Source: Gilvimarinus xylanilyticus
GTDB taxonomy: Bacteria > Pseudomonadota > Gammaproteobacteria > Pseudomonadales > Cellvibrionaceae
Direction of reading: 5' to 3'
Length of the DNA: 64,000 bases
NCBI RefSeq assembly: GCF_024195295.1
Contig: NZ_JAMFTH010000001.1
Location: 1 to 64,000 of the forward strand
Shown here: positions 6,614 to 61,037 of the stretch, piece after piece
Numbering within the stretch: position 1 is the first letter of the stretch
Layout of the letters: each line of letters opens with the position of its first letter
Notes under the pieces: generated by a model
What the model saw: only the letters and a program-made list of their open reading frames with translations
What the model was told of the DNA's origin: nothing
Database searches by the model: none
Position numbers and translations under genes: made by a program

Positions 6614-6642
6614 TTGACAAGGCGTGAATCTATTCGGATAAT
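6614..6642 (+). promoter_or_regulatory. Sigma70-type promoter of the araBDA operon
   Basis: A consensus -35 box TTGACA at 6614-6619, a 17-bp spacer and GATAAT at 6637-6642 form a near-ideal promoter about 55 bp before the araB start. The candidate arabinose operator starts at the last base of the -10 box, an arrangement typical of repression. Confidence 0.8.
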
Positions 6643-6654
6643 ATTATAATACAA
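6642..6654 (-). promoter_or_regulatory. Candidate arabinose-regulon operator at araB
   Basis: On the minus strand this reads TTGTATTATAATA, identical in 13 of 13 bases to a site between the two divergent arabinanase genes at 31820. It sits immediately after the araB -10 box. With flanks it approximates the 16-bp palindrome TTGTATTATAATACAA (14/16). AT-rich sequence lowers the specificity of the match. Confidence 0.55.
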
Positions 6655-6700
6655 AATAAAAAGTGCTCCTCCTCTGGGAGTACCAAAAGGGTTTTGTCTT

Positions 6701-8368
6701 ATGGTTTCGTATGCCTTGGGCCTGGATTATGGGTCCGACTCAGTTCGAGCGTTGCTCGTAAATACCGCGACCGGTGAAGAAGTGGCCTCCAGCGTGGTTA
6801 ACTACCCCCGTTGGGCCAAGGGTCTTTACTGCGAGCCCGCTGCCGACCAGTTTCGTCAGCATCCGCTGGACTATCTGGAGAGCCTCGAACAAGCGCTCGC
6901 CAGTCTCTGGCAAGAGGCGCCCGAGGGCGCTGCCCAATCGGTCGTCGGCATTAGTTTTGATACTACAGGTTCCACTCCTGTAGCCGTGGATAGTGACGGC
7001 GTGGCACTCGCGCTTAAGCCCGAGTTTGCCGAAAACCCCAACGCCATGTTCGTGCTGTGGAAAGATCACACCGCCGTGAAAGAGGCGGCCGAGTTTACCG
7101 CCGCTGCCAACCGCAGCGAGCCCAACTACCTTAAGTATGAAGGTGGCATCTACTCGTCTGAGTGGTACTGGTCCAAAGCGCTGCACGTTATGCGCGCCGA
7201 CAGCGCGGTAAAAGAGGCCGTGCATATGTGGGTAGAGCACTGCGATTGGATGACAGCCGTTTTAACCGGCACTACCCATCCCGATGCCTTTCGTATGAGC
7301 CGCTGCGCCGCGGGGCACAAAGTGATGTGGCATGAAAGTTGGGGCGGGTTCCCGGCCAATGAATTCTTTGCCGGTGTCGACCCGATCCTCGATGGTCTGG
7401 TGGAGTGTCTGCCGACAGAAACCTTTACCGCCGACCAGAAAGTGGGCGAGCTGACCGATGAGTGGGCGCAAAAGCTGGGCTTGCCAGCCGGTATTCCGGT
7501 GGGTTTCTCGGCCTTTGATTGTCACATGGGTGCGGTTGCCGCCAATGTTCAGCCCGGTGTGTTAACCAAGGTCATGGGTACCTCCACCTGCGATATCACC
7601 ATTGCCAGCGCCGACGCTATTGGCGATACCTGCGTGCGCGGTATCTGCGGCCAGGTGGACGGCTCTGTGATTCCCGGCATGATTGGCCTCGAGGCAGGAC
7701 AATCGGCCTTTGGTGATCTTTACGCCTGGTTTAAAAAGCTGATCAACGGCCCAGCGGTTGCCATTATCGAGCAATCCGATGTCCTTGATGACGCTAGCAA
7801 ACAGAAGCTGTTGGCTGAACTAGACGACAAGGCGCTGATTGAATTGTCCGCTGCCGCACAAGCTATTCCCGCCGGCAAAAGCGGTGTAACCGCCCTGGAC
7901 TGGGTGAATGGCCGTCGCACGCCAGATGCCGATCAGACCGTCGCCGGCGCTATTTCAGGCCTTAAAATGGGCAGCGGGGCGGCCGAAGTGTTCCGCGCTC
8001 TGGTTGAGGCCACCGCTTTTGGTGCCCGTGCGATTATCGAGCGCTTTCGCGAAGAAGGCGTGGCGGTAGAGAGTGTGGTGGCCATTGGCGGCATCTCGAA
8101 AAAATCCGATTTTGTGATGCAAACTTGTGCAGACGTCTGGAATTGCCCTATCGACGTACTGGACAGTGATCAGAGCTGTGCCCTGGGCGCGGCTATCTTC
8201 GCGGCGACCGTGGGCGGTGCTCACACCGATGTGGCCAGTGCGCAAAAAGCCATGGGTTCGCAGGTGTGTAAAACCTATCAACCCAATAGTGACGCTGCAT
8301 TGGTATACGATAAGTTGTACCGTCAGTATGAGACGCTGGGGCAGTTTGCCGAAGGAGACAAGTCATGA
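6701..8368 (+). CDS. araB: L-ribulokinase AraB
   Basis: Phosphorylates L-ribulose to L-ribulose 5-phosphate with ATP, the second step of arabinose catabolism. The 555-residue FGGY-kinase fold opens with LGLDYGSDSVRALLV and contains the phosphate motif MGTSTCDIT and the C-terminal AIGGISKKSDFVMQ block, as in AraB. AAGGG lies about 10 bp before the ATG. It is the first gene of araB-araD-araA, with an ATGA overlap to araD, and is driven by the promoter at 6614-6642. Confidence 0.96.
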   Translation: MVSYALGLDYGSDSVRALLVNTATGEEVASSVVNYPRWAKGLYCEPAADQFRQHPLDYLESLEQALASLWQEAPEGAAQSVVGISFDTTGSTPVAVDSDGVALALKPEFAENPNAMFVLWKDHTAVKEAAEFTAAANRSEPNYLKYEGGIYSSEWYWSKALHVMRADSAVKEAVHMWVEHCDWMTAVLTGTTHPDAFRMSRCAAGHKVMWHESWGGFPANEFFAGVDPILDGLVECLPTETFTADQKVGELTDEWAQKLGLPAGIPVGFSAFDCHMGAVAANVQPGVLTKVMGTSTCDITIASADAIGDTCVRGICGQVDGSVIPGMIGLEAGQSAFGDLYAWFKKLINGPAVAIIEQSDVLDDASKQKLLAELDDKALIELSAAAQAIPAGKSGVTALDWVNGRRTPDADQTVAGAISGLKMGSGAAEVFRALVEATAFGARAIIERFREEGVAVESVVAIGGISKKSDFVMQTCADVWNCPIDVLDSDQSCALGAAIFAATVGGAHTDVASAQKAMGSQVCKTYQPNSDAALVYDKLYRQYETLGQFAEGDKS

Positions 8369-9057
8369 GCTACACCGAGTTAAAACGCGAAGTCTACGAA
8401 GCTAACATGCAGCTGCACCACCGCAACCTGGTGGTGTACACCTGGGGTAATGTATCCCAGATCGATCGCGATAAAGGCGTGGTGGCGATCAAGCCCAGTG
8501 GCGTGGCTTACGAAGATTTGAAAGTCGAAGACATTGTTGTGGTCGACTTGGAAAACACCGTAGTTGAGGGAAAAATGCGTCCTTCCTCGGACACTAAAAC
8601 CCACACTCACTTGTATCGACACTTCGACAATATCGGTGGTGTGACGCATACCCACTCTACCTATGCGACCGCCTGGGCGCAGGCGCAGGAACCTATTCCG
8701 TGCCTGGGAACCACCCACGCGGATTACGCCTATGGCGATATTCCCTGTACCGCCGTGATGAGTGACGCGCAAATTGAGCGCGACTACGAAGAGGAAACCG
8801 GCGTACAGATTACCGACTGCTTTACCGGTAAAAACCCGGTGGAAACGCCCATGGTGATTATTGCCGGGCACGCCCCTTTTACCTGGGGTAAAGATGCGGC
8901 GCAGTCGGTTTATCACGCGGTAATTTTAGAAGAAATCGCCAAAATGGCCTATTTGACGCGCACCCTCAAGCAAAGTGTGCAGCCTCTCAAGCAGGGCATT
9001 ATGGATAAACACTATTTACGTAAACACGGCAAAAACGCTTACTACGGCCAAAACTGA
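8365..9057 (+). CDS. araD: L-ribulose-5-phosphate 4-epimerase AraD
   Basis: Converts L-ribulose 5-phosphate to D-xylulose 5-phosphate, feeding the pentose phosphate pathway. At 230 residues it has the class II aldolase fold, with the Zn-binding [13 protein letters not shown] segment and further residues in [10 protein letters not shown]. It could also be UlaF or SgbE, which use the same substrate, but its place between araB and araA settles the role. The start overlaps the araB stop by 4 bp. Confidence 0.95.
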
Positions 9058-9082
9058 GCCGGTCTTAAGCAGTGAGGTAGTT

Positions 9083-10585
9083 ATGAAAATTTATGGTGAT
9101 AAGAAAGTTTGGTTTGTGACCGGCTCGCAGCATTTGTATGGGCCGGCCATGTTGAAAGAGGTGGCCGACAACAGCGCGAAAATCGCCGCTGGTTTAACTG
9201 CCGCTGATAGCATTTCAGCAGAAATTGAATCGAAAGGTGTGGTGACCACGCCAGAGGAAATTCTGGACGTATGTCAGGCCGCTAACAGCGATAAAAACTG
9301 TGTCGGTCTGATTCTGTGGATGCACACTTTCTCGCCCGCCAAAATGTGGATTGCCGGTCTGTCTGCGCTGAACAAGCCTTACATGCACCTGCACACCCAG
9401 TTCGGTGCCGAACTGCCTTGGGGTGAGATCGACATGCACTATATGAACCTCAACCAAAGTGCCCACGGTGACCGCGAGTTCGGTTACATTGGCACCCGTC
9501 TGCGCCAGGAGCGCAAAGTGGTTGTGGGGCACTGGGAGCGCGAGAGCGTGCAACAGCAAATCGATAACTGGGTTCGTGCCGCTATGGGCTGGAACGAAGC
9601 GAAAAACTTGCGCATTGCCCGCTTTGGCGACAACATGCGTCAGGTGGCCGTGACCGAGGGTGATAAGGTCTCTGCGCAAATCCAGTTTGGTTACGAAGTT
9701 CACGCTTACGGGCTGGGCGACCTGGCGAAAGTGTGCGACGCGGTTACCGACGAGGAAATCGCCGCGCAACTGGAGCTGTACAAAGCCGACTACGAAATTG
9801 CCGATGAAATCTTCAGCGATGCACATCAGTTGGAAATGTTGCAAAACGAAGCGCGCCTGGAATTGGGTATGGAGCGCTTTATGGAAGAGAAGGGCTGTAA
9901 GGCCTTTACCAACTGCTTCGAAAACCTGACCGGTTTGTCGGGCCTGCCCGGGCTTGCCACTCAGCGCCTGATGAGCAAAGGCTACGGCTATGGCGGTGAA
10001 GGCGATTGGAAAACCGCAGCCATGGGCCGCATTGTGAAGGTGATGAGCAAAGGCCGCGAAGGCGGTACTTCGTTTATGGAAGATTACACCTACCACTTCG
10101 GCGCTAAAGACCAGGTGTTGGGTGCGCACATGTTGGAAATCTGTCCCTCTATCGCAGGTGACAAGCCAAAAGTTGTGGTTGAGCGTCATACCATCGGTAT
10201 CAAAAAAGACATCGCACGTTTGTTGTTCACCGGCGCCACTGGTCCCGCATTGAACATTTCAACCATCGATATGGGTACACGTTTCCGTATTATCGTGAAC
10301 GAAGTGGACACTGTTGAGCCACCGGCCGATCTGCCGCACCTGCCAGTTGCCAAGGCGCTGTGGGAGCCCAAGCCGAGCCTGGAAGTGGCCGGTGCTGCCT
10401 GGATTCACGCCGGTGGTGCGCACCACAGTGTGTACACCCAGGGCATTACCACCGAGCAGGTGCTGGACTTCGCCGAAATGGCTAACGTGGAAACCGTGGT
10501 TATTGACGAAAACACCACGGTGCGCGAGTTCAAGCAAGAGCTTCGCTTTAACTCGGTGTTTTACCACCTGAATCAAGGTATTTAA
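9083..10585 (+). CDS. araA: L-arabinose isomerase AraA
   Basis: Isomerises L-arabinose to L-ribulose, the entry step. From the ATG at 9083 the product is 500 residues, the same length as E. coli AraA, and starts [20 protein letters not shown] as in the family. A longer frame from 8975 overlaps araD and is an artefact. GAGG lies 9 bp upstream of the chosen ATG. Family blocks such as MEDYTYHFG and [12 protein letters not shown], with the metal-binding Glu and His, are present. Confidence 0.97.
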
Positions 10586-10600
10586 CACCGCGTCATCCAC

Positions 10601-10674: not shown

Positions 10675-12048
10675 ATGAAGACTGAAAAGTTATCCGTCGT
10701 CGAAAAAGTAGGCTTTGGTGCCGGCGATATGTCCGTGAATGTAATGATCGCGGCCATGTTCTACTTTATGCAGTATTTTTATACTGATATTTTCGGCTTA
10801 AAGCCCGCTCACGTGGGTACGTTGTTCCTTGCCGCCCGCTTCCTTGACGCTCTCAGCGATCCGCTGATGGGCATGTTGACCGATAAGTTTAAAAGCCGTT
10901 GGGGTCGTTTTCGTCAGTACTTTTTGTACCTCTCAATTCCCTATGGCTTCGCCGTCTTTTTGCTGTTTACCACACCGGACTTTAGCTACAACGCTAAACT
11001 GGTATGGGCCTATGTAACCTATCTCTTTGCCACCTTAATGTTTACCGGTGTGGCTATACCCTACATTTCGTACATCGGTGTTCTAACCAGTGATCCGCAA
11101 GAACGGTTATCCGCCAATGGCTATCGCATGTTCTTTGCAAAAATTGCCAATGTTGTGATTGTAGCCTCAGTACCAGCATTAGCCGCCATGTGGGGTGATG
11201 GCAACGCCGCCAAGGGTTATCAGTTGGCGATGGGCTTTATGTCCTTAATTGGTGTGGGCTTGCTACTGTTTTGTTTTTCTACCACCCGCGAGCGTGTTGA
11301 GCATGTGGTGGATAAAAAGCCACTGGGCGAGCAATTAAAATTGCTGCTCCAGAACGATCAATGGTTGGTCCTCGCGGCCTGCTGCATGCTGGGGACTCTG
11401 GGTTATGCCATGCGCGGTGGGGTGGCCTTTTACTACACCATTTATTACTTGGGTGGCAGTGAAAGTATGGCGGCAACCTTTACCAGTGCTGGTATTGCCG
11501 CGTCTATTGCGTCCATGGTGGCTTCTACCTGGATTACCAAGCGCTACTGTAAGGTCAAACTGTTCCGCTACTCGCAAATTCTCGTGGGTGTGCTAAGCCT
11601 GCTGATGTACTTTGCCGTATCCCCCGGCGATATTGCCCTGGCGTTTGTGCTCTATGTGATTCTGTCTTTTGTCGTGGATTTGCATGCGCCAATTTTCTGG
11701 TCTGCTATTGCCGAGGCGGTGGACTATGGCCAAGCCAAAACCGGCAAGCGAGTGTCAGGCTTGGCATTTGGCGGTATCTCTTTCTGTCAAAAGGCGGGCG
11801 CCGGTTTGGCGGGCTTTATCACCGGCCTGTTGTTGACCTTTTTCGGTTACCAGGCAGGAGAGCAGCAGACTGAGTTTGCCCTTACCGGTATCGCCCTTAT
11901 GTTGACAATTATTCCCGGTGCCTTTCACACCTTGCTGGGCTTTGTGCTTTACAAGTACAAAATTACTGATCGCTTTTACAACGAGATGGTGGAGCGCGGC
12001 GAGATTGAATCGGAAGCGCCCGAATACACCATTGAAGAGACAACCTAA
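10675..12048 (+). CDS. GPH-family (glycoside-pentoside-hexuronide) sodium/sugar symporter
   Basis: An inner-membrane carrier of 457 residues with about twelve hydrophobic segments. The start EKVGFGAGDMSVNVM, the loop LSDPLMGMLTDKFKSRWGRFRQY and the central VDYGQAKTGKRVSGLAFGG region are characteristic of the GPH family (MelB, XynB/YicJ types). It lies 90 bp after araA and 17 bp before a cytosolic GH43, so arabinose or short arabino-oligosaccharides are the likely cargo. The coupling ion is inferred from the family. Confidence 0.9.
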   Translation: MKTEKLSVVEKVGFGAGDMSVNVMIAAMFYFMQYFYTDIFGLKPAHVGTLFLAARFLDALSDPLMGMLTDKFKSRWGRFRQYFLYLSIPYGFAVFLLFTTPDFSYNAKLVWAYVTYLFATLMFTGVAIPYISYIGVLTSDPQERLSANGYRMFFAKIANVVIVASVPALAAMWGDGNAAKGYQLAMGFMSLIGVGLLLFCFSTTRERVEHVVDKKPLGEQLKLLLQNDQWLVLAACCMLGTLGYAMRGGVAFYYTIYYLGGSESMAATFTSAGIAASIASMVASTWITKRYCKVKLFRYSQILVGVLSLLMYFAVSPGDIALAFVLYVILSFVVDLHAPIFWSAIAEAVDYGQAKTGKRVSGLAFGGISFCQKAGAGLAGFITGLLLTFFGYQAGEQQTEFALTGIALMLTIIPGAFHTLLGFVLYKYKITDRFYNEMVERGEIESEAPEYTIEETT

Positions 12049-12065: not shown

Positions 12066-13013
12066 GTGACTGTATTAAAACCGTTAATTGAACAGCGGGC
12101 AGACCCGCACATTTACAAGCACACCGATGGCTATTATTACTTTACCGCCAGTGTGCCAGCCTACGATGGTGTCGAGTTGCGTCGCGCCAAAACCATTGCC
12201 GAGCTGGCTACCGCCGAGCCGGTTATGGTTTGGAAGAAGCCCGACACAGGCCCGTACAGCGATCTGATTTGGGCACCCGAGATTCACTTCAACCAGGGTG
12301 CCTGGTATGTGTATTTCGCTGCAGCGCCGTCGCGCGAAATTAAAAACGATTTGTTTCAGCACCGGATGTATGCAATTTCTTGCAAAGACGACAATCCGGT
12401 AGCGGGGCAGTGGACGTTTGAAGGTCAGGTTGACTCGGGTATTGATACCTTTTGCCTAGATGCCACCACTTTTACTCACAACGACGTGCTTTACTATGTT
12501 TGGGCACAAAAGGAAGAGGGCATTCGCGGTAACTCCAACCTCTACATTGCCCCCATGAAAACGCCTACCGAAATCGAAGGCGAGCCGGTGCGCTTGACCA
12601 TTCCCGAATACGATTGGGAAATTATCGGTTTTTGGGTCAACGAAGGGCCGTCTATTGTGAAGCACGGTGGTAAGATCTTTATGACTTACTCGGCCAGTGC
12701 TACCGACGAAAACTACGCGATGGGTTTGCTGTGGGCTGATGAAGATGCCGACTTGCTGGATCCCGCGAGCTGGACCAAGTCCAAAGAGCCGGTGCTGCGC
12801 TCCAGCCCCGACTACAATATCTTTGGCCCCGGCCACAACAGCTTTACCAAAGCCGAGGACGGCGAGACTGATTTGCTGGTTTACCATGCCCGCACCTACA
12901 CCGAAATTGAGGGTGACCCACTGTGGGATCCCAACCGTCACACTTTTGTGAAAAAGCTTAAGTGGGGTGAAGATGGTATGCCGATCTTTGGCGACGCGGC
13001 ATTGGATGATTAA
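12066..13013 (+). CDS. Cytoplasmic GH43 exo-arabinofuranosidase-like enzyme
   Basis: A 315-residue GH43 beta-propeller without a signal peptide, so probably cytosolic. The GH43 triad is visible as Asp in RADPHIY, Asp in CLDATTF and Glu in VNEGPS. The sequence most resembles exo-1,5-alpha-L-arabinofuranosidases of GH43 subfamily 26. The start is GTG at 12066 with GGAGA five bases upstream. It follows the symporter by 17 bp, suggesting it hydrolyses imported arabino-oligosaccharides. A paralogue with a signal peptide is encoded at 31895. Confidence 0.88.
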   Translation: MTVLKPLIEQRADPHIYKHTDGYYYFTASVPAYDGVELRRAKTIAELATAEPVMVWKKPDTGPYSDLIWAPEIHFNQGAWYVYFAAAPSREIKNDLFQHRMYAISCKDDNPVAGQWTFEGQVDSGIDTFCLDATTFTHNDVLYYVWAQKEEGIRGNSNLYIAPMKTPTEIEGEPVRLTIPEYDWEIIGFWVNEGPSIVKHGGKIFMTYSASATDENYAMGLLWADEDADLLDPASWTKSKEPVLRSSPDYNIFGPGHNSFTKAEDGETDLLVYHARTYTEIEGDPLWDPNRHTFVKKLKWGEDGMPIFGDAALDD

Positions 13014-13093: not shown

Positions 13094-15466
13094 ATGATAA
13101 AAAAACTTGTCCTCTGTGCCAGCCTGGCGACCCTGAGTATCGGCGCCCAGGCGGTAGATTACTTTGCCATTGATCAAGTGCGTGTAAACGACGGCCCTTT
13201 TGCCCACGCGCAGAATAAAAATCTTGAGTATGTGATGACCATGTCGCCGGACCGGCTGCTGGCGCCTTATTTGCGCGAAGCGAGTTTAACGCCTAAAACG
13301 GCCAGCTACGGTAACTGGGAAAATACCGGTCTTGATGGCCATATCGGCGGCCATTATGTGACTTCGCTCAGCCTCGCCTATGCCGCTACCGGTCGCGACG
13401 ATGTAAAGCAGCGCCTGCAATATGTACTGGATGAGCTGGAGCGGGCACAGAATGCCAATGGCAATGGTTACTTGGGAGGCGTGCCCGATAGCGATAAGCT
13501 TTGGCAGGAAATCGCCAAGGGCGATATCCGTGCGGACTTGTTTGCCTTAAACGGTTACTGGGTGCCCTGGTACAACCTGCACAAGATTTTTGCCGGGCTA
13601 CGCGATGCCTACCTGTATACCGGTAGTGAGCAGGCCAAGCGGATGATGATCAAATGGGCCGACTGGGTGGATGATCTGGTAGCCGATTTATCCGACGCGC
13701 AAATTGAGCAAATGCTTACCACTGAATACGGCGGTATGAATGAAACCTTCGCTGATGTGTATGAGATTACCGGCGACAAAAAGTATTTGACTCTGGCGAA
13801 GCAATTTTCCCACAAGAAAATTCTTAATCCCCTAGAGCAAAAGCGCGATGAGCTGACCGGCCTGCACGCCAATACGCAAATCCCTAAAATTGTCGGCTTT
13901 GAGCGCGTGGCGCAGGAAAGTGGTAACGATTCCTGGCACCAGGCGGCGGAGTATTTTTGGGAAACGGTGGTGAATGAGCGCAGTGTCGCCATTGGCGGTA
14001 ACAGCGTGCGTGAACACTTCCACGACAAAGATGACTTTGACCCCATGATCGAAGAGATTGAGGGGCCAGAAACCTGCAATACCTACAACATGCTTAAATT
14101 AACCAAGTTGTTGTACGGCCGCGATACCTCGCTCGATTACGTGAGCTACTACGAGCGCGCACTTTACAATCACATCTTGTCGTCTCAGCATCCCGATACT
14201 GGTGGGCTGGTGTACTTTACGCCTATGCGCCCTAACCATTACCGCAAGTACTCAGAAACGCATCAAGGAATGTGGTGCTGTGTGGGGTCGGGGATTGAAA
14301 ACCACTTTAAGTACGGCGAGTTTATTTACGCTCACGAAGACGATGATTTACTGGTAAATCTATACATCCCCTCGACTCTTAATTGGGAAGACAAAGGGGT
14401 CGTGTTAACACAAAGCACGCAATTTCCGGATCGCTCCACGACCCGTCTCACCTTCGAAAAGGCCGGAGATGTGACCTTAAAACTGCGTTACCCACAATGG
14501 GCCACGGCGAATGCTGAGGTCACTGTTAACGATAAAGAAATCGCGGTTGACGCCTCAGCGGGCCAATACATCGAGCTTGATCGGGATTGGCAAAAGGGCG
14601 ATGTGGTAGAGCTTAAGCTGCCCATGAAAACCCATTTGGAAGCTCTGCCCGATGGTTCTGACTATTATGCGGTGATGTACGGGCCGATCGTGCTGTCTGC
14701 GAAAACTTCGCCGTTTAAAGATGAGGTACTGAACTACTACTCCGATGCCAGCCGCATGGGGCACATTGCCGATGGCGAGCGCTGCCCAATTGAGCAGGCG
14801 CCAATGCTGGTGGCCAAGGACACTAACTTTGCCGATCGGATTACCCGTGTCTCAGACGACGAGCTGCGCTTTAAGGCCTCTGAGTTGATTCAGCCTGAGT
14901 CCTACCAAAACGTAGAGTTGATTCCGTTTTTCCGCGTGCACGAGTCGCGCTATATGCTCTACTGGCCCTACAGTACCCCGGAGAATATTAACGCTTTACG
15001 CGAGAAGCGCGCCGCTGAAGAGGCCGCTAACTTAGCCTTAGAAGCGGTGACCGTGGATAAAGTCGCACCGGGTGAGCAGCAGCCGGAATCCGATCACTTC
15101 TTTAAAGGGAGTGAAAGTGAAGCCGGGGTTAACTTTGGCCGTCACTGGCGCCACGCCCACGACTGGTTCAGCTACCAGATGAATGACCCGGACGGTCAAG
15201 CCAGAATCTTGCAGATCACCTACTTTGGGGGTGATGTGGGGCGACATTTCTTTATCGAGTTTAACGGTAAGACCTTGGCCGAGGTGACCTTAGGCGGTGA
15301 GCATGGAGCAGAGTTTTATACCGTGGAGTATCCGATTCCAGAGCAGATGCTGGCACTGGGTTCAGAGGGCAAGCATGAGTTGAAGTTCGTCGCGGCTGAA
15401 AACTCCGTTGCTGGCGGTATTTATGGGGTTCGATTGTTGTCAGAAATGCCTGACAGCACCGATTAA
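13094..15466 (+). CDS. Exported GH127/GH146 beta-L-arabinofuranosidase
   Basis: A 790-residue enzyme of the former DUF1680 group with signal peptide MIKKLVLCASLATLSIGAQA. The core starts with VRVNDGPFAHAQNKNLEY and GLDGHIGGHYVTSLSLAYAA. Zn-site residues equivalent to Glu338, Cys340, Cys417 and Cys418 of HypBA1 appear as Glu326, Cys328 (ETCNTYNML), Cys395 and Cys396 (WCCVGSG); one cysteine is the nucleophile in this family. The family releases beta-linked L-arabinofuranose found on hydroxyproline-rich glycoproteins and RG-II, a linkage GH43 and GH51 enzymes do not cut. Overall pattern favours GH146 over GH127, not proven. Confidence 0.9.
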   Translation: MIKKLVLCASLATLSIGAQAVDYFAIDQVRVNDGPFAHAQNKNLEYVMTMSPDRLLAPYLREASLTPKTASYGNWENTGLDGHIGGHYVTSLSLAYAATGRDDVKQRLQYVLDELERAQNANGNGYLGGVPDSDKLWQEIAKGDIRADLFALNGYWVPWYNLHKIFAGLRDAYLYTGSEQAKRMMIKWADWVDDLVADLSDAQIEQMLTTEYGGMNETFADVYEITGDKKYLTLAKQFSHKKILNPLEQKRDELTGLHANTQIPKIVGFERVAQESGNDSWHQAAEYFWETVVNERSVAIGGNSVREHFHDKDDFDPMIEEIEGPETCNTYNMLKLTKLLYGRDTSLDYVSYYERALYNHILSSQHPDTGGLVYFTPMRPNHYRKYSETHQGMWCCVGSGIENHFKYGEFIYAHEDDDLLVNLYIPSTLNWEDKGVVLTQSTQFPDRSTTRLTFEKAGDVTLKLRYPQWATANAEVTVNDKEIAVDASAGQYIELDRDWQKGDVVELKLPMKTHLEALPDGSDYYAVMYGPIVLSAKTSPFKDEVLNYYSDASRMGHIADGERCPIEQAPMLVAKDTNFADRITRVSDDELRFKASELIQPESYQNVELIPFFRVHESRYMLYWPYSTPENINALREKRAAEEAANLALEAVTVDKVAPGEQQPESDHFFKGSESEAGVNFGRHWRHAHDWFSYQMNDPDGQARILQITYFGGDVGRHFFIEFNGKTLAEVTLGGEHGAEFYTVEYPIPEQMLALGSEGKHELKFVAAENSVAGGIYGVRLLSEMPDSTD

Positions 15467-30675: not shown

Positions 30676-31725
30676 CTACTCGATAGATTCCACCAAAACG
30701 CTCTGGTAGCTATCGAGCTCGGCTGGGTCCACTTGGGGCCAGCCGTTTTGCCATCGGATAGGCAAAATCTTTAATTTCTGCAGGCCGTTGTCGGCCGCTT
30801 CATAGGCGTGGAAGACTAAGTAGTCTTCACCCTCGAAGGTGTAGGCGCTGTTGTGCCCCAGCCCCGGCCAATCCTCGTTCCCTTTTAAGATTACCGTGGC
30901 GCCGCCCTGGGACAGGTCGCGACCGTCTTTATCCAGATAAGGACCCGTGACCGACTCGCTGCGGCCTACGGCCAAGTGGTAGGTGCTCTCGGCGCCGCGG
31001 CAGCATTTTCCTAAGGAAATAAATTGATAGTAGTAATCGCCGTGCTGGAAGATAAACGGCGCTTCCAGTTCGGTAGGGCCTGCCTCGTGGGCGGGCACAT
31101 CGGCGGGGCGGGTGCCAGCGGCAATGCTGTACCATTGTTCGGGCTCGGCCGGGCCGGACCAATCCTCGTTTAACTTAAACATCTTGTGGCCGCTCCAGAA
31201 GGAGCCAAACGCCATCCAGCCGGTGCCGTCTTCGTCTTCAATAACGGCGGGGTCAATGGCGTTCCAGTTATCGCGGTTGGGTACTGACTGCACTACAATG
31301 CCTTGATCTTCCCAGCCGTAATCGGGCGAGTTGGGGTCAAGGGTTTCGGTGATGGTTAAACCGATGGCCGACGTATTTTTACCAAAAGCGGATACCGAAT
31401 AGTACAAATGGTATTGGCCGTCTTTTTCCACCACATCCGGCGCCCACAGATGGCCGCCAAACTCCGCCGCTACGTCTTTGGCCCAAGTGGGCTCGGTGGC
31501 AAAAGCGCGGCCTTGATGCTCCCAGTGCACTCGGTCTTTGGAGCGATAAATGGTAATCCCGGGGCCGGTGCTAAACAGATAGTAGTAGCCGTCTTCGGTG
31601 GCCATTACCGGGTCGTGAATGCTTACTTGCTGGCCCAGGCGGTCAAATTCGGGCTTGGCGTTAGTGCAGCTGGCGGTTAGCAGGGCGCTGAAAATCAGGC
31701 CGGTAGTCAGTTTAAGTTTGCTCAT
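30676..31725 (-). CDS. GH43 endo-1,5-alpha-L-arabinanase-like lipoprotein
   Basis: A 349-residue five-bladed beta-propeller. The N-terminus MSKLKLTTGLIFSALLTASC has a lipobox, so the enzyme is probably membrane-anchored. The triad is Asp in IHDPVM, Asp in AIDPAV and Glu in ELEAPFI. The C-terminal LKILPIRWQNGWPQVDP block is typical of endo-arabinanases (GH43_5 type, as in Cellvibrio Arb43A). It would cut the arabinan backbone into oligomers at the cell surface or periplasm. It is divergent from the exo-acting GH43 at 31895, with a shared regulatory region. Confidence 0.9.
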   Translation of the reverse strand: MSKLKLTTGLIFSALLTASCTNAKPEFDRLGQQVSIHDPVMATEDGYYYLFSTGPGITIYRSKDRVHWEHQGRAFATEPTWAKDVAAEFGGHLWAPDVVEKDGQYHLYYSVSAFGKNTSAIGLTITETLDPNSPDYGWEDQGIVVQSVPNRDNWNAIDPAVIEDEDGTGWMAFGSFWSGHKMFKLNEDWSGPAEPEQWYSIAAGTRPADVPAHEAGPTELEAPFIFQHGDYYYQFISLGKCCRGAESTYHLAVGRSESVTGPYLDKDGRDLSQGGATVILKGNEDWPGLGHNSAYTFEGEDYLVFHAYEAADNGLQKLKILPIRWQNGWPQVDPAELDSYQSVLVESIE

Positions 31726-31819
31726 CAGACACTCTTATGTTCTATCGTTGTTTACGCTTCTTTGCAGTGTGTGGCTCTGCCTTGTGGGTAATTTGATCCC
31801 TGCGCGCTTGTACCAATTA

Positions 31820-31832
31820 TTGTATTATAATA
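31820..31832 (+). promoter_or_regulatory. Candidate arabinose-regulon operator between divergent arabinanase genes
   Basis: TTGTATTATAATA lies in the 169-bp divergent region and is identical to the minus-strand site at the araB promoter. Extended to 16 bp it matches the palindrome TTGTATTATAATACAA at 14 positions. It is placed to affect both genes. Confidence 0.55.
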
Positions 31833-31894
31833 ATATTCAATTGCAAGCGGGTTACAACCCGTCACCCAATAATAGTTGCTAACAAGGGATCTCT

Positions 31895-35974: not shown

Positions 35975-37762
35975 ATGAAAAATTGGAAAAAACTTACCGG
36001 CGTGTGCGCCCTGGCAGCGGCTGTGGCTGCTTGCGCGCAAACCGATAAAGTGACCACCAGCGAGCAAGAGCAGACTCTGCCCGAGGGTTACTTTACCAAC
36101 CCGCTGTTTGCCAATGGTGCCGACCCCTGGTTGGAATATTGGGACGGCAACTACTACCTCACTACCACTACCTGGACCTCGCAGTTGGTGATGCGCAAAT
36201 CGCCCACCTTGGCCGGTTTGTCTGAAGCGGCGCCGATCAATGTATGGTCCGATACCGATCCGGCGCGCAGCTGGAATTTTTGGGCGTTTGAATTTCACCG
36301 TTTAAATGGCCCCAACGGCTGGCGCTGGTATTTGATGTATACCTCGGGCGTCGAAGGTACTCTGGATTACCAGCACCTGTCAGTCCTGGAAAGCGCCGGT
36401 GACGACCCCATGGGCCCTTACGAGTACAAAGGCCACTTTATGCCCGATGAGTGGAACATCGACGGTACCTACTTAGAGCACGATGGCAAACTTTACCTGT
36501 TGTACTCTCAGTGGCAGGGCGATGAACAGCTCAACCTGATCACCGAAATGGAAAACCCCTGGACCCTGAAAGAGGGATCACCCAAAGTTGTGATTACGCG
36601 CCCCACATTGGAGTGGGAAATCAGCGGGCGCAAGGTGACCGAGGGTGCAGAGATCCTGAAACACAAAGATCGCACTTTCCTGATTTACTCGGCGAGCTAC
36701 TGCGATACCCCCGATTACAAACTGGGCATGAAAGAGTTGATTGGCGACGATCCGCTTAACCCCGATCACTGGAAACAGTATGACGAGCCTGTGTTCCAGC
36801 GCGGTAACGGCGTATTCGGCCCCGGCCACAACGGCTTCTTTGTCTCGCCCGATGGCACCCAGGACTGGATTGTTTACCACGGTAACTCCAAAGAAGAGTA
36901 TGGCTGTGGTTCGACCCGCTCGGTGCGCGCACAGGAGTTTACCTGGACCGAAGAAGGGCTGCCCGATTTCGGCGTTCCCATCCCCGAAGGCGAGCCTGTG
37001 AAAATGCCTTCGGGTGAAAATGGCCCCATTAAAGTATCGGTACAGGGTGTGCAGCAGCAGTTGGTCAATCGCGACGGTCAGTGCCTGACCACCAGCGGTG
37101 GTAAAACCTCATTGGCCGCTTGCACAGGTGCCAATGCCAACTGGGTGTTGGACTCAACGGCCGATGGCGCCTACCGTCTGGCGCACGTCGAAACCGGTAC
37201 TTTTATCGATCAGAACCAAGAGTCTAGTGCCTGGGTGAACACCGATACCCAGCGCTGGAGCGTCACCACTGATGAAAATGGCTGGTTGAACATCACCAAC
37301 CGCGAAACCGGTGCGACTCTGGGTGGCGATAACAGCCAATGGCGCTTGGCGCCCCAGGGCGATGTGGCCGTAATGAGTGTTCAGAGCGGTAAAGCCCTGG
37401 CTGTGGATGGCGACAACGCCGTGCAGGATGCCTGGACCGGTGTTGACGCCCAACAGTGGCAGCTCAGTCACACCGAAGAGGGTTTTTATCAACTGCATCC
37501 GGCGCAAAACGCCGAACAGTGCCTGACCCTTGAGGGCAACCCCATTGTGCCCGGCGCCAATGCCGCACTGGGTAGCTGCGACGAGGTATGGTCTGAGTGG
37601 GTGGTCGAGCCACTGGGCGACGGCTCGGTACAGCTGCGCAACCGCCACAGCAGCCTGGCACTGAATGTGGACAGCTGCGGGTTGGCCAACGGAGCTAACC
37701 TGGCGCAGGCGCCCTGGCTGGATACTGATTGTCAGAAATTCCAGTTGCGCGAAAGTCGCTAA
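35975..37762 (+). CDS. GH43 lipoprotein with C-terminal ricin-type (CBM13-like) repeats
   Basis: A 595-residue protein with lipobox (AAAVAACAQ). The GH43 propeller spans about 35-340, with Asp in GADPWLEY, Asp in NIDGTYLEH and Glu in VTEGAEI. The remainder carries Gln-x-Trp-type beta-trefoil repeats (QQLVNRDGQCLTTSGGKT, QWRLAP, EQCLTLEGNP, SEWVVEP), suggesting carbohydrate binding. Likely an alpha-L-arabinofuranosidase tethered to polysaccharide; exact linkage unknown. GAGG precedes the ATG, and the gene follows GH97 by 26 bp. Confidence 0.85.
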   Translation: MKNWKKLTGVCALAAAVAACAQTDKVTTSEQEQTLPEGYFTNPLFANGADPWLEYWDGNYYLTTTTWTSQLVMRKSPTLAGLSEAAPINVWSDTDPARSWNFWAFEFHRLNGPNGWRWYLMYTSGVEGTLDYQHLSVLESAGDDPMGPYEYKGHFMPDEWNIDGTYLEHDGKLYLLYSQWQGDEQLNLITEMENPWTLKEGSPKVVITRPTLEWEISGRKVTEGAEILKHKDRTFLIYSASYCDTPDYKLGMKELIGDDPLNPDHWKQYDEPVFQRGNGVFGPGHNGFFVSPDGTQDWIVYHGNSKEEYGCGSTRSVRAQEFTWTEEGLPDFGVPIPEGEPVKMPSGENGPIKVSVQGVQQQLVNRDGQCLTTSGGKTSLAACTGANANWVLDSTADGAYRLAHVETGTFIDQNQESSAWVNTDTQRWSVTTDENGWLNITNRETGATLGGDNSQWRLAPQGDVAVMSVQSGKALAVDGDNAVQDAWTGVDAQQWQLSHTEEGFYQLHPAQNAEQCLTLEGNPIVPGANAALGSCDEVWSEWVVEPLGDGSVQLRNRHSSLALNVDSCGLANGANLAQAPWLDTDCQKFQLRESR

Positions 37763-37798: not shown

Positions 37799-37809
37799 GT
37801 ATGATGGGT

Positions 37810-37822
37810 TTGTCATATAATA
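37810..37822 (+). promoter_or_regulatory. Candidate arabinose-regulon operator before GH51
   Basis: TTGTCATATAATA matches TTGTATTATAATA in 11 of 13 bases and lies 60 bp before the GH51 start. The same segment offers a TATAAT -10 hexamer (37816-37821), so operator and promoter may overlap. Confidence 0.45.
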
Positions 37823-37881
37823 GTCATTATTACTATTAGGCCCTTGCGGTCGAGAGCTCATAATAAAACCAAGGAGTCACC

Positions 37882-39414
37882 ATGAAATTAAAACGCCTGT
37901 TAGCGGTTAGCGTCCTGCTGGCCAGTCAACCATTACTCGCTAAAGATCATAAGGTTGAGATCGAATTTGACGCCGATAAAACCGGCCCCCTGATTCACAA
38001 AGACATCTACGGCCAGTTTGCCGAGCACTTGGGGCGCGGCATCTACGAAGGCGTTTGGGTGGGCGAAGATTCCGATATCCCCAATACCCGAGGCTTTCGC
38101 AACGATGTTTTAAACGCGTTGCGCGACATTAAAGTGCCTTTGGTGCGCTGGCCCGGCGGTTGTTTTGCCGATGAATATCACTGGCGTGAAGGTATAGGCC
38201 CTCGCGATGAACGCCCGGTAAAAGTAAACACCCACTGGGGCGGAGTGGAAGAACCCAACACTTTTGGTACCCACGAGTTTTTTGAGTTCGTCGAACTGTT
38301 AGGCGCCGATGCCTATGTTAACGGCAACCTGGGCAGCGGCAGCGTACAGGAAATGGCCGAGTGGATGGAATACATGACCGGCGAGAAAGGCTCTACCCTT
38401 GCCGAAGAGCGTCGCAAAAACGGCCGCGAAGAACCCTTTGAAATTGCCTACTTTGGTGTGGGCAATGAGGCTTGGGGGTGCGGCGGCAATATGCGCCCTG
38501 AGTATTACGCCGACTTGTATCGTCAGTACTCCACTTTCTTAAAAGCCCCCAGCGGCAAAATGCCCAAGCTGGTGGCCAGTGGTGGTCACAGTGAAGACAC
38601 AAGCTGGACCGATGTGCTGAGCAAAAACATCGAACAGAAAATTGATGGTATTAGCTATCACTACTACACCCTGCCCAATAGCGATTGGGATAACAAAGGT
38701 CGCGCCATTCAGTTCAGTGAAGACGAGTGGTTTAATACCATGGCGCGTACCTACAAAATTGATGATTACATCAGTGCCAACTTAGCCAAGCTGGAAGAGA
38801 ACGACCCAGACGGAGATATTAAATTCTACGTGGACGAGTGGGGCACTTGGTATGACCCAGAGCCAGAACGCGACCCGGGCTTTTTGTACCAGCAGAACAC
38901 CCTGCGTGATGCGGTGGTGGCGGCGGTGAATTTTAATATTTTCCACGACCACGCCGAGCGCGTCACCATGACCAATATCGCGCAAATGGTAAACGTGCTG
39001 CAGGCCATGATTCTCACCGATAAAGAGAAAATGGTTTTAACGCCCACTTACCATACCTACGGCATGTACAAAGTGTTCCAAAACGCCACGTCTATTCCGT
39101 TTGAAATTGACTCGCCCAAGTACCAAAAGGGCGATAAAAGTGTACCGGCGGTCACCGCATCGGTCGCCCGTGGTGAAAACGGAAAACTGTACCTGGCGCT
39201 GGTGAATATGGACCCTGAAAATGGTGCCGAGGTATCGCTGGATATCGATGGCGTCAAGGCCGAACGGGCGGTAGGGCAAATACTGACCGCCGAGGCGATG
39301 GACGCACGCAATACTTTCGACAACCCCGAAGCCTTGGAGCCAGTGGCGTTTGCAAGTGATCTGGATGAGCTGGAAATTCCGGCAAAATCTGTGGTGGTGG
39401 TTGAGCTGCAATAA
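37882..39414 (+). CDS. Exported GH51 alpha-L-arabinofuranosidase
   Basis: A 510-residue retaining enzyme with signal peptide MKLKRLLAVSVLLASQPLLA. IYGQFAEHLGRGIYEGVW and LVRWPGGCFADEYHW are GH51 marks; the acid/base Glu is in GVGNEAWGCG and the nucleophile Glu in YVDEWGTWYD. GH51 enzymes remove alpha-1,2, -1,3 and -1,5 arabinofuranose and are often cytosolic, so export is notable. AAGGAG lies 7 bp upstream. It is the last gene of the arabinan cluster, and a solo MITE end follows 5 bp after the stop. Confidence 0.95.
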   Translation: MKLKRLLAVSVLLASQPLLAKDHKVEIEFDADKTGPLIHKDIYGQFAEHLGRGIYEGVWVGEDSDIPNTRGFRNDVLNALRDIKVPLVRWPGGCFADEYHWREGIGPRDERPVKVNTHWGGVEEPNTFGTHEFFEFVELLGADAYVNGNLGSGSVQEMAEWMEYMTGEKGSTLAEERRKNGREEPFEIAYFGVGNEAWGCGGNMRPEYYADLYRQYSTFLKAPSGKMPKLVASGGHSEDTSWTDVLSKNIEQKIDGISYHYYTLPNSDWDNKGRAIQFSEDEWFNTMARTYKIDDYISANLAKLEENDPDGDIKFYVDEWGTWYDPEPERDPGFLYQQNTLRDAVVAAVNFNIFHDHAERVTMTNIAQMVNVLQAMILTDKEKMVLTPTYHTYGMYKVFQNATSIPFEIDSPKYQKGDKSVPAVTASVARGENGKLYLALVNMDPENGAEVSLDIDGVKAERAVGQILTAEAMDARNTFDNPEALEPVAFASDLDELEIPAKSVVVVELQ

Positions 39415-43848: not shown

Positions 43849-43865
43849 CTTTCTGAGAGTGAACA

Positions 43866-55785: not shown

Positions 55786-57417
55786 CTACCAGAAGCGGAC
55801 GTAGATGCCCACGGTAATCGCGATAATCACCACGGTGTGGAAAATATCCCACTTGGTGATACCGGCTTTGATTTCCGCTTTTTGCTCCGGGCTGATAGAG
55901 CCGTAGGTGATACCGGCAATTTGGCTATCGGGCGCGCGCTGAGTAAAGAAGCTAACGCCGATAACAATAGCGCAGGTTGCCAGGAACAGGCCGATGCAGT
56001 AGTACAGCCAGTTAACGGTCACCAGTGACTCTAAAATGCCACCGGCCGGCAGGCTGTCGGAAAAGATCTGCAGTACCAGGCGCGTCATGCCCAGAATAAA
56101 GCCCCCGACCAGACCGATAAAACCTGCGGTGGGGGTGATTCGTTTAGAGAATACACCCAGCAGGAACACCACGGCGACCGCCGGGGCAATCAGCGACTGA
56201 ACCAGTTGCAGATATTCGTAGAGTACATCCGCAACCATCTGCATCACCGGAATCCAGATAACACCCAACGCAACCACCACCAGAGTGGCCATACGGCCCA
56301 CTTTTACCAGGTGTTGCTCGGACGATTCGGGCTTAAAGCGCTTGTAAAAATCGATGGTGAACAGGGTCGCCGACGAATTAAACAGCGATGCCAGCGAGCT
56401 CATCAAGGCGGCAATCAGGCCCCCGATGACAATACCTTTAACACCGGCAGGCAGCAAGGTAGAAACCAGTGTGGCGAACGCTTGGTCCGGCGTATCCATT
56501 TGGATAATGCCTTTTTCGTTCAGGGCGAAGGCGATCATGCCCGGGAACAAAAAGATAAATACTGGCAGCAGCTTCAGATACCCGGCAAAAAAGGTACCGC
56601 GACGCGCCGCCTGAATGCCCTTGGCCGACAGCACACGCTGAACGATGTACTGATCGGTACACCAGTACCAAAAACCAATAATCATCGAGCCGAAAATAAC
56701 GCCGGGCCAGGGGAAGTTCGGGTCAGAGGCGGGGCGGAACAGGCTCATTTTCTCGCCATTAATGCGCTCCAGTTCGGCAAAGCCGCCCAGCGCTTCCAGG
56801 CCGGTGACCAGAATAACCACCGAGCCAATAATCAGCACCGGCGTTTGAATCACCGAGGTCCAGAGAATGGCTTTCATGCCCCCTAGGACGGTGTAAATAC
56901 CGGTAATCAGCACCAGGCCAATCGCCGCCACCCAGAAGAAGTCAAAGCCCCACAGGGTATCAATGCCTAGCACCGTCTGCAGCACCACGCCGCCCGCGTA
57001 TACCGTCACCGACACTTTGGTCAGTACATAGCTGATTAGCGAGATAATAGAGAGGAAGGTGCGGCTAGAGGGACCGTAACGGCGCTCCAGAAACTCGGGC
57101 ATGGTGTAAATTTTACTGGACCAGTAAAAGGGAACGAACATCCAACCCAGCAAAATAATAATAAACGACTGCAGCTCCCAGTGGGCCATGGCCATACCGG
57201 TTTGTGCCCCGGCGCCGGACAGCCCAACCAAGTGCTCCGAGCCGATGTTAGAGGCGAAAATCGATGAACCAATGACCAGCCAGCCGGCGTTGCGCCCGGC
57301 GAGAAAATAGTCCGCGGTATCGTTTTCTTTTTGCCGCATGCAGATACCTACAGTGACGGCGAGTACTAGGAAGAAAGCGCCTAGTACCCAATAGTCTAAA
57401 AGGGCGAATTCAATCAT
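55786..57417 (-). CDS. SSS-family sodium/sugar symporter (SglT-like)
   Basis: A 543-residue inner-membrane carrier with about fourteen hydrophobic segments. IGSSIFASNIGSEHLVGLSGAG, GWMFVPFYWSSKIYTMPEFLERRYG and VYAGGVVLQTVLGID are SGLT-type. The C-terminus ends in a hydrophobic helix. An arabinose-type operator motif lies upstream (57469-57481), so it probably imports arabinose or another pentose, alongside the GPH carrier of the araBDA block. Distance to glpK (230 bp) argues against one operon. Confidence 0.9.
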   Translation of the reverse strand: MIEFALLDYWVLGAFFLVLAVTVGICMRQKENDTADYFLAGRNAGWLVIGSSIFASNIGSEHLVGLSGAGAQTGMAMAHWELQSFIIILLGWMFVPFYWSSKIYTMPEFLERRYGPSSRTFLSIISLISYVLTKVSVTVYAGGVVLQTVLGIDTLWGFDFFWVAAIGLVLITGIYTVLGGMKAILWTSVIQTPVLIIGSVVILVTGLEALGGFAELERINGEKMSLFRPASDPNFPWPGVIFGSMIIGFWYWCTDQYIVQRVLSAKGIQAARRGTFFAGYLKLLPVFIFLFPGMIAFALNEKGIIQMDTPDQAFATLVSTLLPAGVKGIVIGGLIAALMSSLASLFNSSATLFTIDFYKRFKPESSEQHLVKVGRMATLVVVALGVIWIPVMQMVADVLYEYLQLVQSLIAPAVAVVFLLGVFSKRITPTAGFIGLVGGFILGMTRLVLQIFSDSLPAGGILESLVTVNWLYYCIGLFLATCAIVIGVSFFTQRAPDSQIAGITYGSISPEQKAEIKAGITKWDIFHTVVIIAITVGIYVRFW

Positions 57418-57468
57418 TATTTGTATTCCCTGCTATACATAATTATAAGACTTAGCACAGTGTGGACT

Positions 57469-57481
57469 TATTATACTATAA
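57469..57481 (-). promoter_or_regulatory. Candidate arabinose-regulon operator before the SSS symporter
   Basis: Read on the minus strand this is TTATAGTATAATA, 11 of 13 bases like TTGTATTATAATA. It lies inside a perfect 15-bp palindrome, TATTATA-C-TATAATA (57469-57483), about 52 bp before the symporter start. High AT content makes chance resemblance possible. Confidence 0.4.
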
Positions 57482-57606
57482 TAGTTTGTGTGACTATAAG
57501 TCGGCGTGTCGGTGGCGCTGATAAATCGCACGACCGGCGCAATCATAGCAAAGCCGCGCTAAATCGTTAAGTTCTAGGGCTTTTTTTAGGCATTCTTTTT
57601 GTTTTT

Positions 57607-57649: not shown

Positions 57650-57677
57650 AGTAAGATAAATTGTTTTATATTTGTGG

Positions 57678-57706: not shown

Positions 57707-57711
57707 TCAAA

Positions 57712-57722
57712 TTGTAATACAA
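57712..57722. promoter_or_regulatory. Candidate arabinose-regulon operator at the TonB receptor promoter
   Basis: TTGTAATACAA is a perfect palindrome around one base. Read on the minus strand, the site with two flanking bases matches TTGTATTATAATA in 11 of 13. It begins 6 bp after the -10 box, over the expected transcription start. Confidence 0.5.
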
Positions 57723-60656: not shown

Positions 60657-60688
60657 TTCCACTAATGGGCTAGTGGATGCAGAAGTGA

Positions 60689-60756
60689 GCCCCTTCGGGG
60701 GTCCAACCGGCTAACGCCGGAAGCGCCTTCGGGCGCACAGGCAGAGCAATCTGCCT
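60689..60756 (+). ncRNA. Tandem small hairpins after the TonB receptor gene (structured 3' region)
   Basis: Four consecutive stem-loops: GCCCC-TTCG-GGGGT, CCGG-CTAACG-CCGG, GCGCC-TTCG-GGCGC and AGGCAGA-GCAA-TCTGCCT. Two have UUCG and one a GNRA (GCAA) loop, both unusually stable. No T-tract follows here; a proper terminator comes at 60835. The segment could be a stabilised 3' UTR, a small RNA or a repetitive extragenic element. Classification as RNA is tentative. Confidence 0.45.
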
Positions 60757-60834
60757 ATGTATTACTTCACTCTGTGCTCTGTATTAGCGTGCGGTCGGCA
60801 CGGGGTGTTGCGATACATGGTCTCTTCTTGTTTT

Positions 60835-60860
60835 GCCCCCTTTTTTAAGGGGGCTTTTTT
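60835..60860 (+). terminator. Terminator downstream of the TonB receptor
   Basis: GCCCCC and GGGGGC form a 6-bp stem around TTTTTTAA, followed by six T. It ends the transcript of the receptor and its hairpin array. Confidence 0.85.
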
Positions 60861-61026
60861 GTATCTGGCGTTCGTGTCTGGCTCTTTTGACCCGCCGTTA
60901 CCCTCCTCAATCATCCATTTCATACCTCGATAGAGTCTGTTATTTGATTCCAGATCGCCCGGAACTGGCTCTTTATCGGACATTTTCACTTGAATCTGGG
61001 CGCAAGAGTCGATACTTTTAGCCAAC

Positions 61027-61037
61027 TTGTAATATTG
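61027..61037 (+). promoter_or_regulatory. Weak operator-like motif before the GntR gene
   Basis: TTGTAATATTG shares the first eight bases with TTGTAATACAA at the receptor promoter (8 of 11 overall) and ends 11 bp before the GntR start. It may reflect autoregulation. Confidence 0.3.

What the first reader, a model, noticed from the sequence alone, without database searches (positions are those of the whole stretch)
6642..61037. Shared AT-rich operator defining an arabinose/arabinan regulon
TTGTATTATAATA is exact at araB (6642, minus strand) and between divergent arabinanase genes (31820). Copies with 11/13 matches occur before GH51 (37810), the SSS symporter (57469) and the large TonB receptor (57712, minus strand). 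At araB and the receptor it sits just after a 17-bp-spaced promoter, a repressor position. A weaker copy precedes the FCD-type GntR gene at 61049, the best regulator candidate.
Basis: partly seen in the sequence, partly recalled or inferred. Interest (0 to 1): 0.8.

Follow-up and report, generated by a model that had tools for sequence, protein, structure and literature searches.

The report
GntR-type repressor's arabinose operator set
A short, nearly symmetric DNA word sits in front of the arabinose and arabinan genes of a bacterium and is very probably the landing site of one repressor encoded nearby; it ties uptake, polymer digestion and sugar breakdown together, and is a well-supported new case of a familiar kind of gene switch.

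Summary
The shared operator is real, but the 13-mer is part of a 17-21 bp imperfect palindrome with the GntR/FadR-subfamily layout (TTGT-NNN-ACAA). Among 144 family genomes, orthologs of the 61049 GntR/FCD gene and of this AraB occur in the same 33, and 33 of 33 araB promoters carry the site. Symporter, receptor and GH43 sites recur in 5 of 5 Gilvimarinus with the regulator. The GH51 site is weak in this genus (2 of 5), but strong in 11 of 11 of another; 0 of 14 GntR-negative genomes have it. The "weaker copy" before the GntR gene is not supported. The genome has six other places of 13 bits or more, mostly without an arabinose link. In Saccharospirillum, without a close AraB, regulator and operator sit on an apparent oxidative arabinose pathway, suggesting L-arabinose as effector. 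GntR-type arabinose regulators are already predicted in Shewanella and Halomonas. Binding and effector are untested.

The parts
6639..6659 (.). operator 1, araB promoter, core TTATAATACAA (6644-6654), 30.1 bits
   Evidence: core conserved in 33 of 33 araB promoters of GntR-positive family genomes
6701..8368 (+). araB, L-ribulokinase
   Evidence: Pfam FGGY; NCBIfam ribulokinase above cut-off
8365..9057 (+). araD, class II aldolase family (L-ribulose-5-phosphate epimerase by context)
   Evidence: Pfam Aldolase_II; exact function inferred from the operon
8975..10585 (+). araA, L-arabinose isomerase (ORF start is mechanical; true start probably further in)
   Evidence: Pfam, NCBIfam equivalog above cut-off
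10675..12048 (+). GPH-family sugar:cation symporter (AraT-like)
   Evidence: Pfam MFS_2; NCBIfam gph above cut-off
12066..13013 (+). GH43 enzyme
   Evidence: Pfam
13094..15466 (+). GH127 beta-L-arabinofuranosidase family
   Evidence: Pfam
30676..31725 (-). GH43 enzyme, divergent from the next run of genes
   Evidence: Pfam
31815..31835 (.). operator 2, near the middle of the 169-bp divergent GH43/GH43 gap, 25.1 bits
   Evidence: 24.3-28.0 bits in 5 of 5 Gilvimarinus with the regulator
31895..32902 (+). GH43 enzyme
   Evidence: Pfam
32923..33987 (+). aldose 1-epimerase family (mutarotase)
   Evidence: Pfam
34038..35948 (+). GH97 enzyme, same run of genes
   Evidence: Pfam
35975..37762 (+). GH43 with ricin-type lectin domains
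   Evidence: Pfam
37805..37825 (.). operator 3, before GH51, core TTGTCATATAA, 8.0 bits (weakest)
   Evidence: 2 of 5 Gilvimarinus with the regulator reach 8 bits, 11 of 11 GntR-positive genomes of genus g9 reach 13.6 or more, 0 of 14 GntR-negative reach 8
37882..39414 (+). GH51-type alpha-L-arabinofuranosidase
   Evidence: Pfam Alpha-L-AF_C
55786..57417 (-). sodium:solute (SSS) symporter, predicted regulon member
   Evidence: Pfam SSF; NCBIfam sss above cut-off
57466..57486 (.). operator 4, before the symporter, core TTATACTATAA, 13.2 bits
   Evidence: same place in 5 of 5 Gilvimarinus with the regulator, 13.2-20.0 bits
57707..57727 (.). operator 5, before the TonB receptor, perfect core palindrome TTGTAATACAA, 18.5 bits
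   Evidence: same place in 5 of 5 Gilvimarinus with the regulator, 17.1-18.5 bits
57849..60656 (+). large TonB-dependent receptor
   Evidence: Pfam; NCBIfam TonB-Xanth-Caul above cut-off
61049..61768 (+). GntR family, FCD (FadR-subfamily) regulator: proposed L-arabinose repressor
   Evidence: Pfam GntR + FCD; in the same 33 of 144 genomes as araB

Best explanation
The window holds an L-arabinose/arabinan regulon of a Gilvimarinus species. A dimer of the FCD-type GntR protein (61049-61768) most likely binds a 17-21 bp palindrome (core TTRTNNTAYAA) that lies on or just behind the -10 element at the araB operon and the receptor, and before the divergent GH43 genes, the symporter and, more weakly, GH51, and keeps RNA polymerase out. 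When L-arabinose enters the cell the protein probably lets go, and outer-membrane uptake, polymer digestion, inner-membrane uptake and catabolism switch on together. Shown: the sites, their conservation, their place relative to the araB and receptor promoters, and the strict co-occurrence of regulator and araB. Inferred: that this protein binds them, that it represses, and that L-arabinose is the inducer.
For: (1) A matrix from other genera's araB promoters gives exactly the five sites. (2) Regulator orthologs (68% identity or more) and AraB (65% or more) occur in the same 33 of 144 family genomes (Fisher 1.6e-30 with the two other AraB genomes counted against; not corrected for relatedness). 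(3) 33 of 33 of those araB promoters hold the core (32 exact to TTRTMATACAA, 1 with one mismatch; that consensus was read off these promoters); TTGACA exact in 30 of 33, and 29-31 bp before the core in 28 of 33; the two remaining AraB genomes have no place within 2 mismatches of TTGTANTACAA. (4) GH51 promoters, 30 of 58 genomes examined, from three genera: 8 bits or more in 13 of 16 GntR-positive, 0 of 14 GntR-negative. (5) Saccharospirillum (2) and Paraglaciecola (1), with no close AraB, still have sites beside the regulator. (6) The core matches the published FadR-subfamily layout TKGT-NNN-ACMA (PMC4494728).
Against: No binding or expression data. Only 2 of 5 Gilvimarinus with the regulator have a GH51 site of 8 bits or more. 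Of 17 pattern places outside the window 6 score 13 bits or more, mostly in or near genes with no arabinose link. GH43 promoters of GntR-negative genomes also score up to 16.1 bits (4 of 12 reach 12), apparently because a related FCD protein uses a similar site there. The regulator gene has no site in this genus (0 of 5) and one of 12 bits or more within 350 bp in 4 of 33 family genomes. FadR-subfamily regulators usually deal with acids (PMC4494728), so a neutral sugar as effector is not the default.
Confidence: 0.86

Rival explanations
1. The operator is real but a different protein binds it, for example the 45%-identical FCD paralog at G000:C9:225328, whose DNA-reading segment is nearly the same.
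For: The paralog's helix and wing (ISRSVIREAVKML...SSRPRQGIRV) closely resemble those of the window protein; it sits beside an SDR, an SSS symporter and a lactonase-family gene. Other regulators of the genome were not tested.
Against: G042 has no second match at E 1e-20 yet keeps the araB, GH43, symporter and receptor sites; G044 has two more distant FCD matches (45 and 33%) but neither the ortholog nor AraB, and no site before GH51; the 16.5 kb around the paralog has no site of 12 bits (best 9.5).
Confidence: 0.08
2. The repeated words are only AT-rich promoter -10 regions or chance matches in AT-rich gaps.
For: The word contains TATAAT-like strings; the 13-mer at 3 mismatches is only mildly enriched (18 against 11.0); in 5 of 33 araB promoters the core lies 23-26 bp behind the start of the -35 box and so covers the -10.
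Against: In 28 of 33 araB promoters the core lies 29-31 bp behind the start of the -35 box, past a -10 at 17-bp spacing; the conserved part includes the TACAA arm, which is no known promoter element (recalled); 0 of 300 simulated gap sets reach the observed number.
Confidence: 0.03
3. The regulator works at these sites as an activator, or senses an oxidised product (L-arabinonate) rather than L-arabinose.
For: FadR-subfamily proteins mostly deal with acids (PMC4494728); a GntR-type AraR2 in Halomonas is predicted to control an L-arabinonate pathway (PMC5507952).
Against: At araB and the receptor the site overlaps or follows the -10, a repressor position; the AraBAD route makes no arabinonate (established pathway knowledge).
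Confidence: 0.12

Closest known systems
AraR-II of Shewanella (GntR-type, predicted; PMC2996990, passages seen)
   Same: GntR-type regulator with predicted sites at most operons of an ara locus that includes a TonB receptor, a GPH transporter and a mutarotase; the paper names similar clusters in Saccharophagus degradans and Cellvibrio japonicus
   Different: Its protein and motif were not available here (figures not held), so orthology and motif identity are untested; the Shewanella locus also has an ABC transporter and oxidative-pathway genes
AraR2 of Halomonas (GntR family, predicted; PMC5507952, passages seen)
   Same: GntR-family regulator tied to L-arabinose-derived substrates in a gammaproteobacterium
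   Different: Oxidative L-arabinonate pathway and TRAP transporter; motif in a supplement, not seen
FadR-subfamily (FCD) regulators such as DgoR, ExuR, LldR, PdhR (PMC4494728, passages and sections 5 and 10 read)
   Same: Domain build and palindrome layout TKGT-NNN-ACMA
   Different: The examples named there act on acids; the second base of the half-site is T here
AraR of Bacillus (GntR wHTH with LacI-type sensor; PMC4494728, passages seen)
   Same: Controls arabinose and arabinose-polymer genes; GntR-type DNA-binding domain
   Different: Sensor domain is LacI/GalR-like, not FCD; a different lineage

Membership tests
GntR superfamily, FadR (FCD) subfamily regulator | N-terminal GntR winged helix-turn-helix | tested here: met
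   PF00392, 67 bits over cut-off 27
GntR superfamily, FadR (FCD) subfamily regulator | C-terminal FCD domain | tested here: met
   PF07729, 74 bits over cut-off 24.3; nearest solved chain by sequence 7c7e, 94 bits; no structure was predicted
GntR superfamily, FadR (FCD) subfamily regulator | AT-rich palindromic operator TKGT-N3-ACMA | tested here: met
   TTGTAATACAA at 57712; the other four sites carry A for G (or T for C) in one or both arms
GntR superfamily, FadR (FCD) subfamily regulator | binds the operator and releases it with a small molecule | not testable with these tools
   needs protein
Shewanella AraR-II ortholog | reciprocal best match with the Shewanella protein and same motif | not tested
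   the named protein and motif were not obtained; an even draw of 369 class genomes gave no match at E 1e-75 other than the window's own genome, with at most 7 candidates scored in the genomes listed
Bacillus-type AraR | LacI/GalR-like sensor domain | tested here: not met
   FCD sensor instead

The most novel reading that the evidence does not exclude
This regulator-operator pair stays tied to L-arabinose while the breakdown route changes: in Cellvibrionaceae it controls araBAD, while in two Saccharospirillum genomes, which lack a close AraB, the same regulator (74-78% identical) and operator sit before an AraD1-family gene and, in one of the two, before an L-arabinonate-dehydratase-like gene. 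L-arabinose is the obvious metabolite the two routes share, so the protein would be an FCD regulator that senses a neutral sugar, unlike the acid-related regulators typical of its subfamily. In one genus group that lacks this regulator, a related FCD protein appears to have taken over the arabinan genes with a slightly shifted operator.
Probability: 0.4. Interest if true: 0.55.

Novelty: new member of a known kind. Interest (0 to 1): 0.4.

Why it matters
It names a regulator and operator for arabinose and arabinan use in 33 genomes of one family, assigns a large TonB receptor and an SSS symporter to that regulon in Gilvimarinus, and gives a clean test of whether an FCD-type GntR protein can sense a neutral sugar.

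Tried and rejected
The raw 13-mer as motif: too loose at 3 mismatches; replaced by the palindrome. Autoregulation through the copy near 61030: rejected. Regulon extension outside the window: 22 distinct places match WTTRTNNTAYAAW in the genome, 5 in the window (the tool's backward-read control gave similar totals, 14 and 15 against 14 and 17, and the pattern was shaped on the window's sites, so this count is no evidence by itself). Of the 17 outside, 8 score 8 bits or more and 6 score 13 or more: within the SapC, PALP and DctM genes, 225 bp before an HlyD gene (also inside a small mechanical ORF), about 260 bp before a PFK-family gene, and about 340 bp before a lectin/beta-helix gene. The last is the only plausible extra member, but in two congeners it is weaker and elsewhere (14.0 and 7.6 bits). 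A further 17.2-bit place before a Rieske/cytochrome bc1 operon is probably chance. Places that do not match the pattern were not sought genome-wide.

One search read the araB loci on one strand only and gave wrong starts for the genes on the other strand; it was redone on both strands, and no figure here rests. The two AraB genomes without the regulator (L091, L092) and the five Gilvimarinus were left out of the matrix.

Covariation of DNA-reading residue 39 (Thr/Ser) with an operator base (A/C): concordant in 30 of 33 (Fisher 2.3e-6), but on a tree the residue changes once and the base three times, so it rests on one shared split and is not counted as evidence. Loss of the FadR Arg-35 contact (Ala in 35 of 35 ortholog rows, of which one is a duplicate) fits T instead of G at the second half-site base (PMC4494728), but the 6 related FCD proteins also have Ala although their sites carry A/G there in one arm, so this is weak too. 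An order-wide search around Paraglaciecola for Shewanella-like relatives failed as asked and was dropped; the class-wide sample gave nothing new. No structure was predicted; it would not decide the question.
Full report
What was checked. The window lies in a 3.93-Mb genome of a Gilvimarinus species (family Cellvibrionaceae): the window's GntR protein is 94, 94 and 89% identical to those of G. gilvus, G. algae and G. agarilyticus, whose places agree with genomes that the search tool puts in the window's genus. The genes are as described: araB (ribulokinase), an araD-like gene, araA, a GPH transporter, GH43 and GH127 in one run; two divergent GH43 genes, the right-hand one followed by mutarotase, GH97 and GH43-lectin genes; GH51; an SSS symporter; a large TonB receptor; and a GntR/FCD gene. 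The FGGY kinase at 54075 is glycerol kinase by NCBIfam.

The operator is a palindrome. The five sites share TTRT-NNN-AYAA flanked by A/T; the fullest form is ATATTRTNNTAYAATAT, and the receptor site has the perfect core TTGTAATACAA. This is the layout given for the FadR subfamily of GntR regulators, TKGT-NNN-ACMA (PMC4494728 section 10).

Independent test of the sites. From the 144 genomes of the family that the tool holds I took araB upstream regions. The 33 araB genes with 65% or more identity to the window's all carry the core 41-101 bp before the start (32 exact to TTRTMATACAA, one with one mismatch; a consensus read off these promoters); TTGACA is exact in 30 of 33 and has one mismatch in three; it starts 29-31 bp before the core in 28 of 33 and 23-26 bp before it in five, where the core covers the -10. 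The two more distant araB genes (52-53%) have no place within 2 mismatches of TTGTANTACAA in 300 bp. In the 33 gaps examined (4850 bp, up to 61768) they are the only places of 8 bits or more; 300 simulated gap sets average 0.36, none reaching five. By whole-window simulation 8 bits is expected 0.78 times and 12 bits 0.17-0.25 times, so four sites are secure and the GH51 site is borderline on score alone.

Conservation of the other promoters. Symporter and receptor sites recur at the same places in the five Gilvimarinus genomes with the regulator (window; L048-L050; L187). The GH43 site recurs in those five at 24.3-28.0 bits, and the best GH43 match has a site of 13.1 bits or more in 13 of 13 further GntR-positive genomes (30 of the 43 genomes with a match were examined). 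Three of three Marinimicrobium loci around the regulator hold sites of 12 bits or more. For GH51, 30 of 58 genomes were examined, from three genera: 13 of 16 GntR-positive genomes reach 8 bits (2 of 5 Gilvimarinus; 11 of 11 of genus g9, unnamed), and 0 of 14 GntR-negative ones do (2 Gilvimarinus and 12 of genus g22; best 5.4).

Which protein. On the same 144 genomes, orthologs of the window's GntR (68% identity or more; the next group is at 56% or below) and its AraB occur in exactly the same 33. The two genes lie on one contig within 115 kb in 24 of 33 and within 2.4 kb in four (G025, G026, G034, G132). Outside the family, two Saccharospirillum genomes (order Oceanospirillales) and a Paraglaciecola still have sites beside the regulator: at 12 bits or more, 2, 2 and 3 in about 20.7 kb, against 0.02, 0.02 and 0.58 in simulated sequence (L054-L056). 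The locus of a distant homolog (26%) in Methylorubrum (L057) has none. The three genomes lack a close AraB (none, one 28% match, none). The DNA-reading segment is nearly constant across the aligned orthologs.

A pathway swap. In Saccharospirillum L054 the gene after the regulator is an AraD1-family protein above its NCBIfam cut-off, with a site centred 59 bp upstream and another before the regulator itself; nearby are a dehydratase scoring 826 bits against the L-arabinonate dehydratase model (cut-off 882, so not formally assigned) and an aldehyde dehydrogenase. L055 has the AraD1-type and dehydratase genes too (74 and 84% identical), with sites before both. Regulator and operator thus appear attached to L-arabinose rather than to one breakdown route, which makes L-arabinose the likeliest effector. 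This is inference. For Paraglaciecola the pathway was not worked out.

A related regulator elsewhere. In genus group g22, which has neither AraB nor this regulator, the loci of the best GH43 match carry a shifted word, TTRGTANTAYAAT (12 of 12 examined within one mismatch), and in 6 of 6 further loci fetched an FCD protein about 37-40% identical lies divergent from an AraT-GH43 pair with such a word, within one mismatch, between them. These GH43 promoters score up to 16.1 bits with the matrix (4 of 12 reach 12), so GntR-negative genomes are not clean negatives for GH43; for GH51 only 1 of 12 g22 loci has the shifted word.

Results against. The copy near 61030 is not supported (1.3 bits; no place of 6 bits or more upstream of the gene in 5 of 5 Gilvimarinus). 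Of 17 pattern places outside the window, 8 score 8 bits or more and 6 score 13 or more, mostly without an arabinose link. The co-occurrence statistic ignores relatedness. A paralog in the same genome has a nearly identical DNA-reading segment; G042, which lacks it at E 1e-20, keeps the sites. Other transcription factors were not tested for the same distribution.

How it most likely works. At araB and the receptor the site lies on or just behind the -10 element, so a bound GntR dimer would block transcription; one site near the middle of the GH43 divergon could control both directions. Binding, repression and the inducer are inferred.

Known context. GntR-type arabinose regulators are predicted in Shewanella (AraR-II; PMC2996990, passages seen) and Halomonas (AraR2; PMC5507952, passages seen), and Shewanella-like ara clusters were noted in Saccharophagus and Cellvibrio japonicus. 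My searches of the held papers listed no paper evidently describing this operator or regulator in Gilvimarinus or Cellvibrionaceae; I saw passages of five papers and read two sections of one of them (PMC4494728), no supplements or figures, and RegPrecise was not available. The verdict is a new, well-supported member of a known kind.

Noticed in passing
window 54075-55556: The FGGY kinase beside the SSS symporter is glycerol kinase (NCBIfam glpK, 711 bits over cut-off 590), not a pentose kinase.
   Followed up: partly
G000:C9:225328-225975 (L126:11820-12527): A 45%-identical FCD paralog with a nearly identical DNA-reading segment sits beside SDR, SSS and SMP-30/lactonase-family genes and near a sulfatase and a TonB receptor: perhaps another sugar's oxidative pathway.
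   Followed up: partly
L191-L196 (g22 genomes): A related FCD regulator, about 37-40% identical, lies divergent from AraT-GH43 with a shifted operator word in genomes that lack AraB.
   Followed up: partly
G000:C4:263376 (L112:1497-1517): A 20.3-bit site lies about 340 bp before a ricin-lectin/beta-helix protein; possible extra regulon member, not positionally conserved in two congeners.
   Followed up: partly
window 43468-45320: A penicillinase-repressor-like gene is followed by an M56/M23 peptidase gene, a BlaI/BlaR-like sensor pair, between the arabinan and receptor clusters.
   Followed up: no
G000:C7:328438 (L013:4939): A TTATATTATAA palindrome lies between divergent znuA-like and Fur-family genes; probably a Zur box (recalled motif), a chance match to the arabinose pattern.
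   Followed up: no
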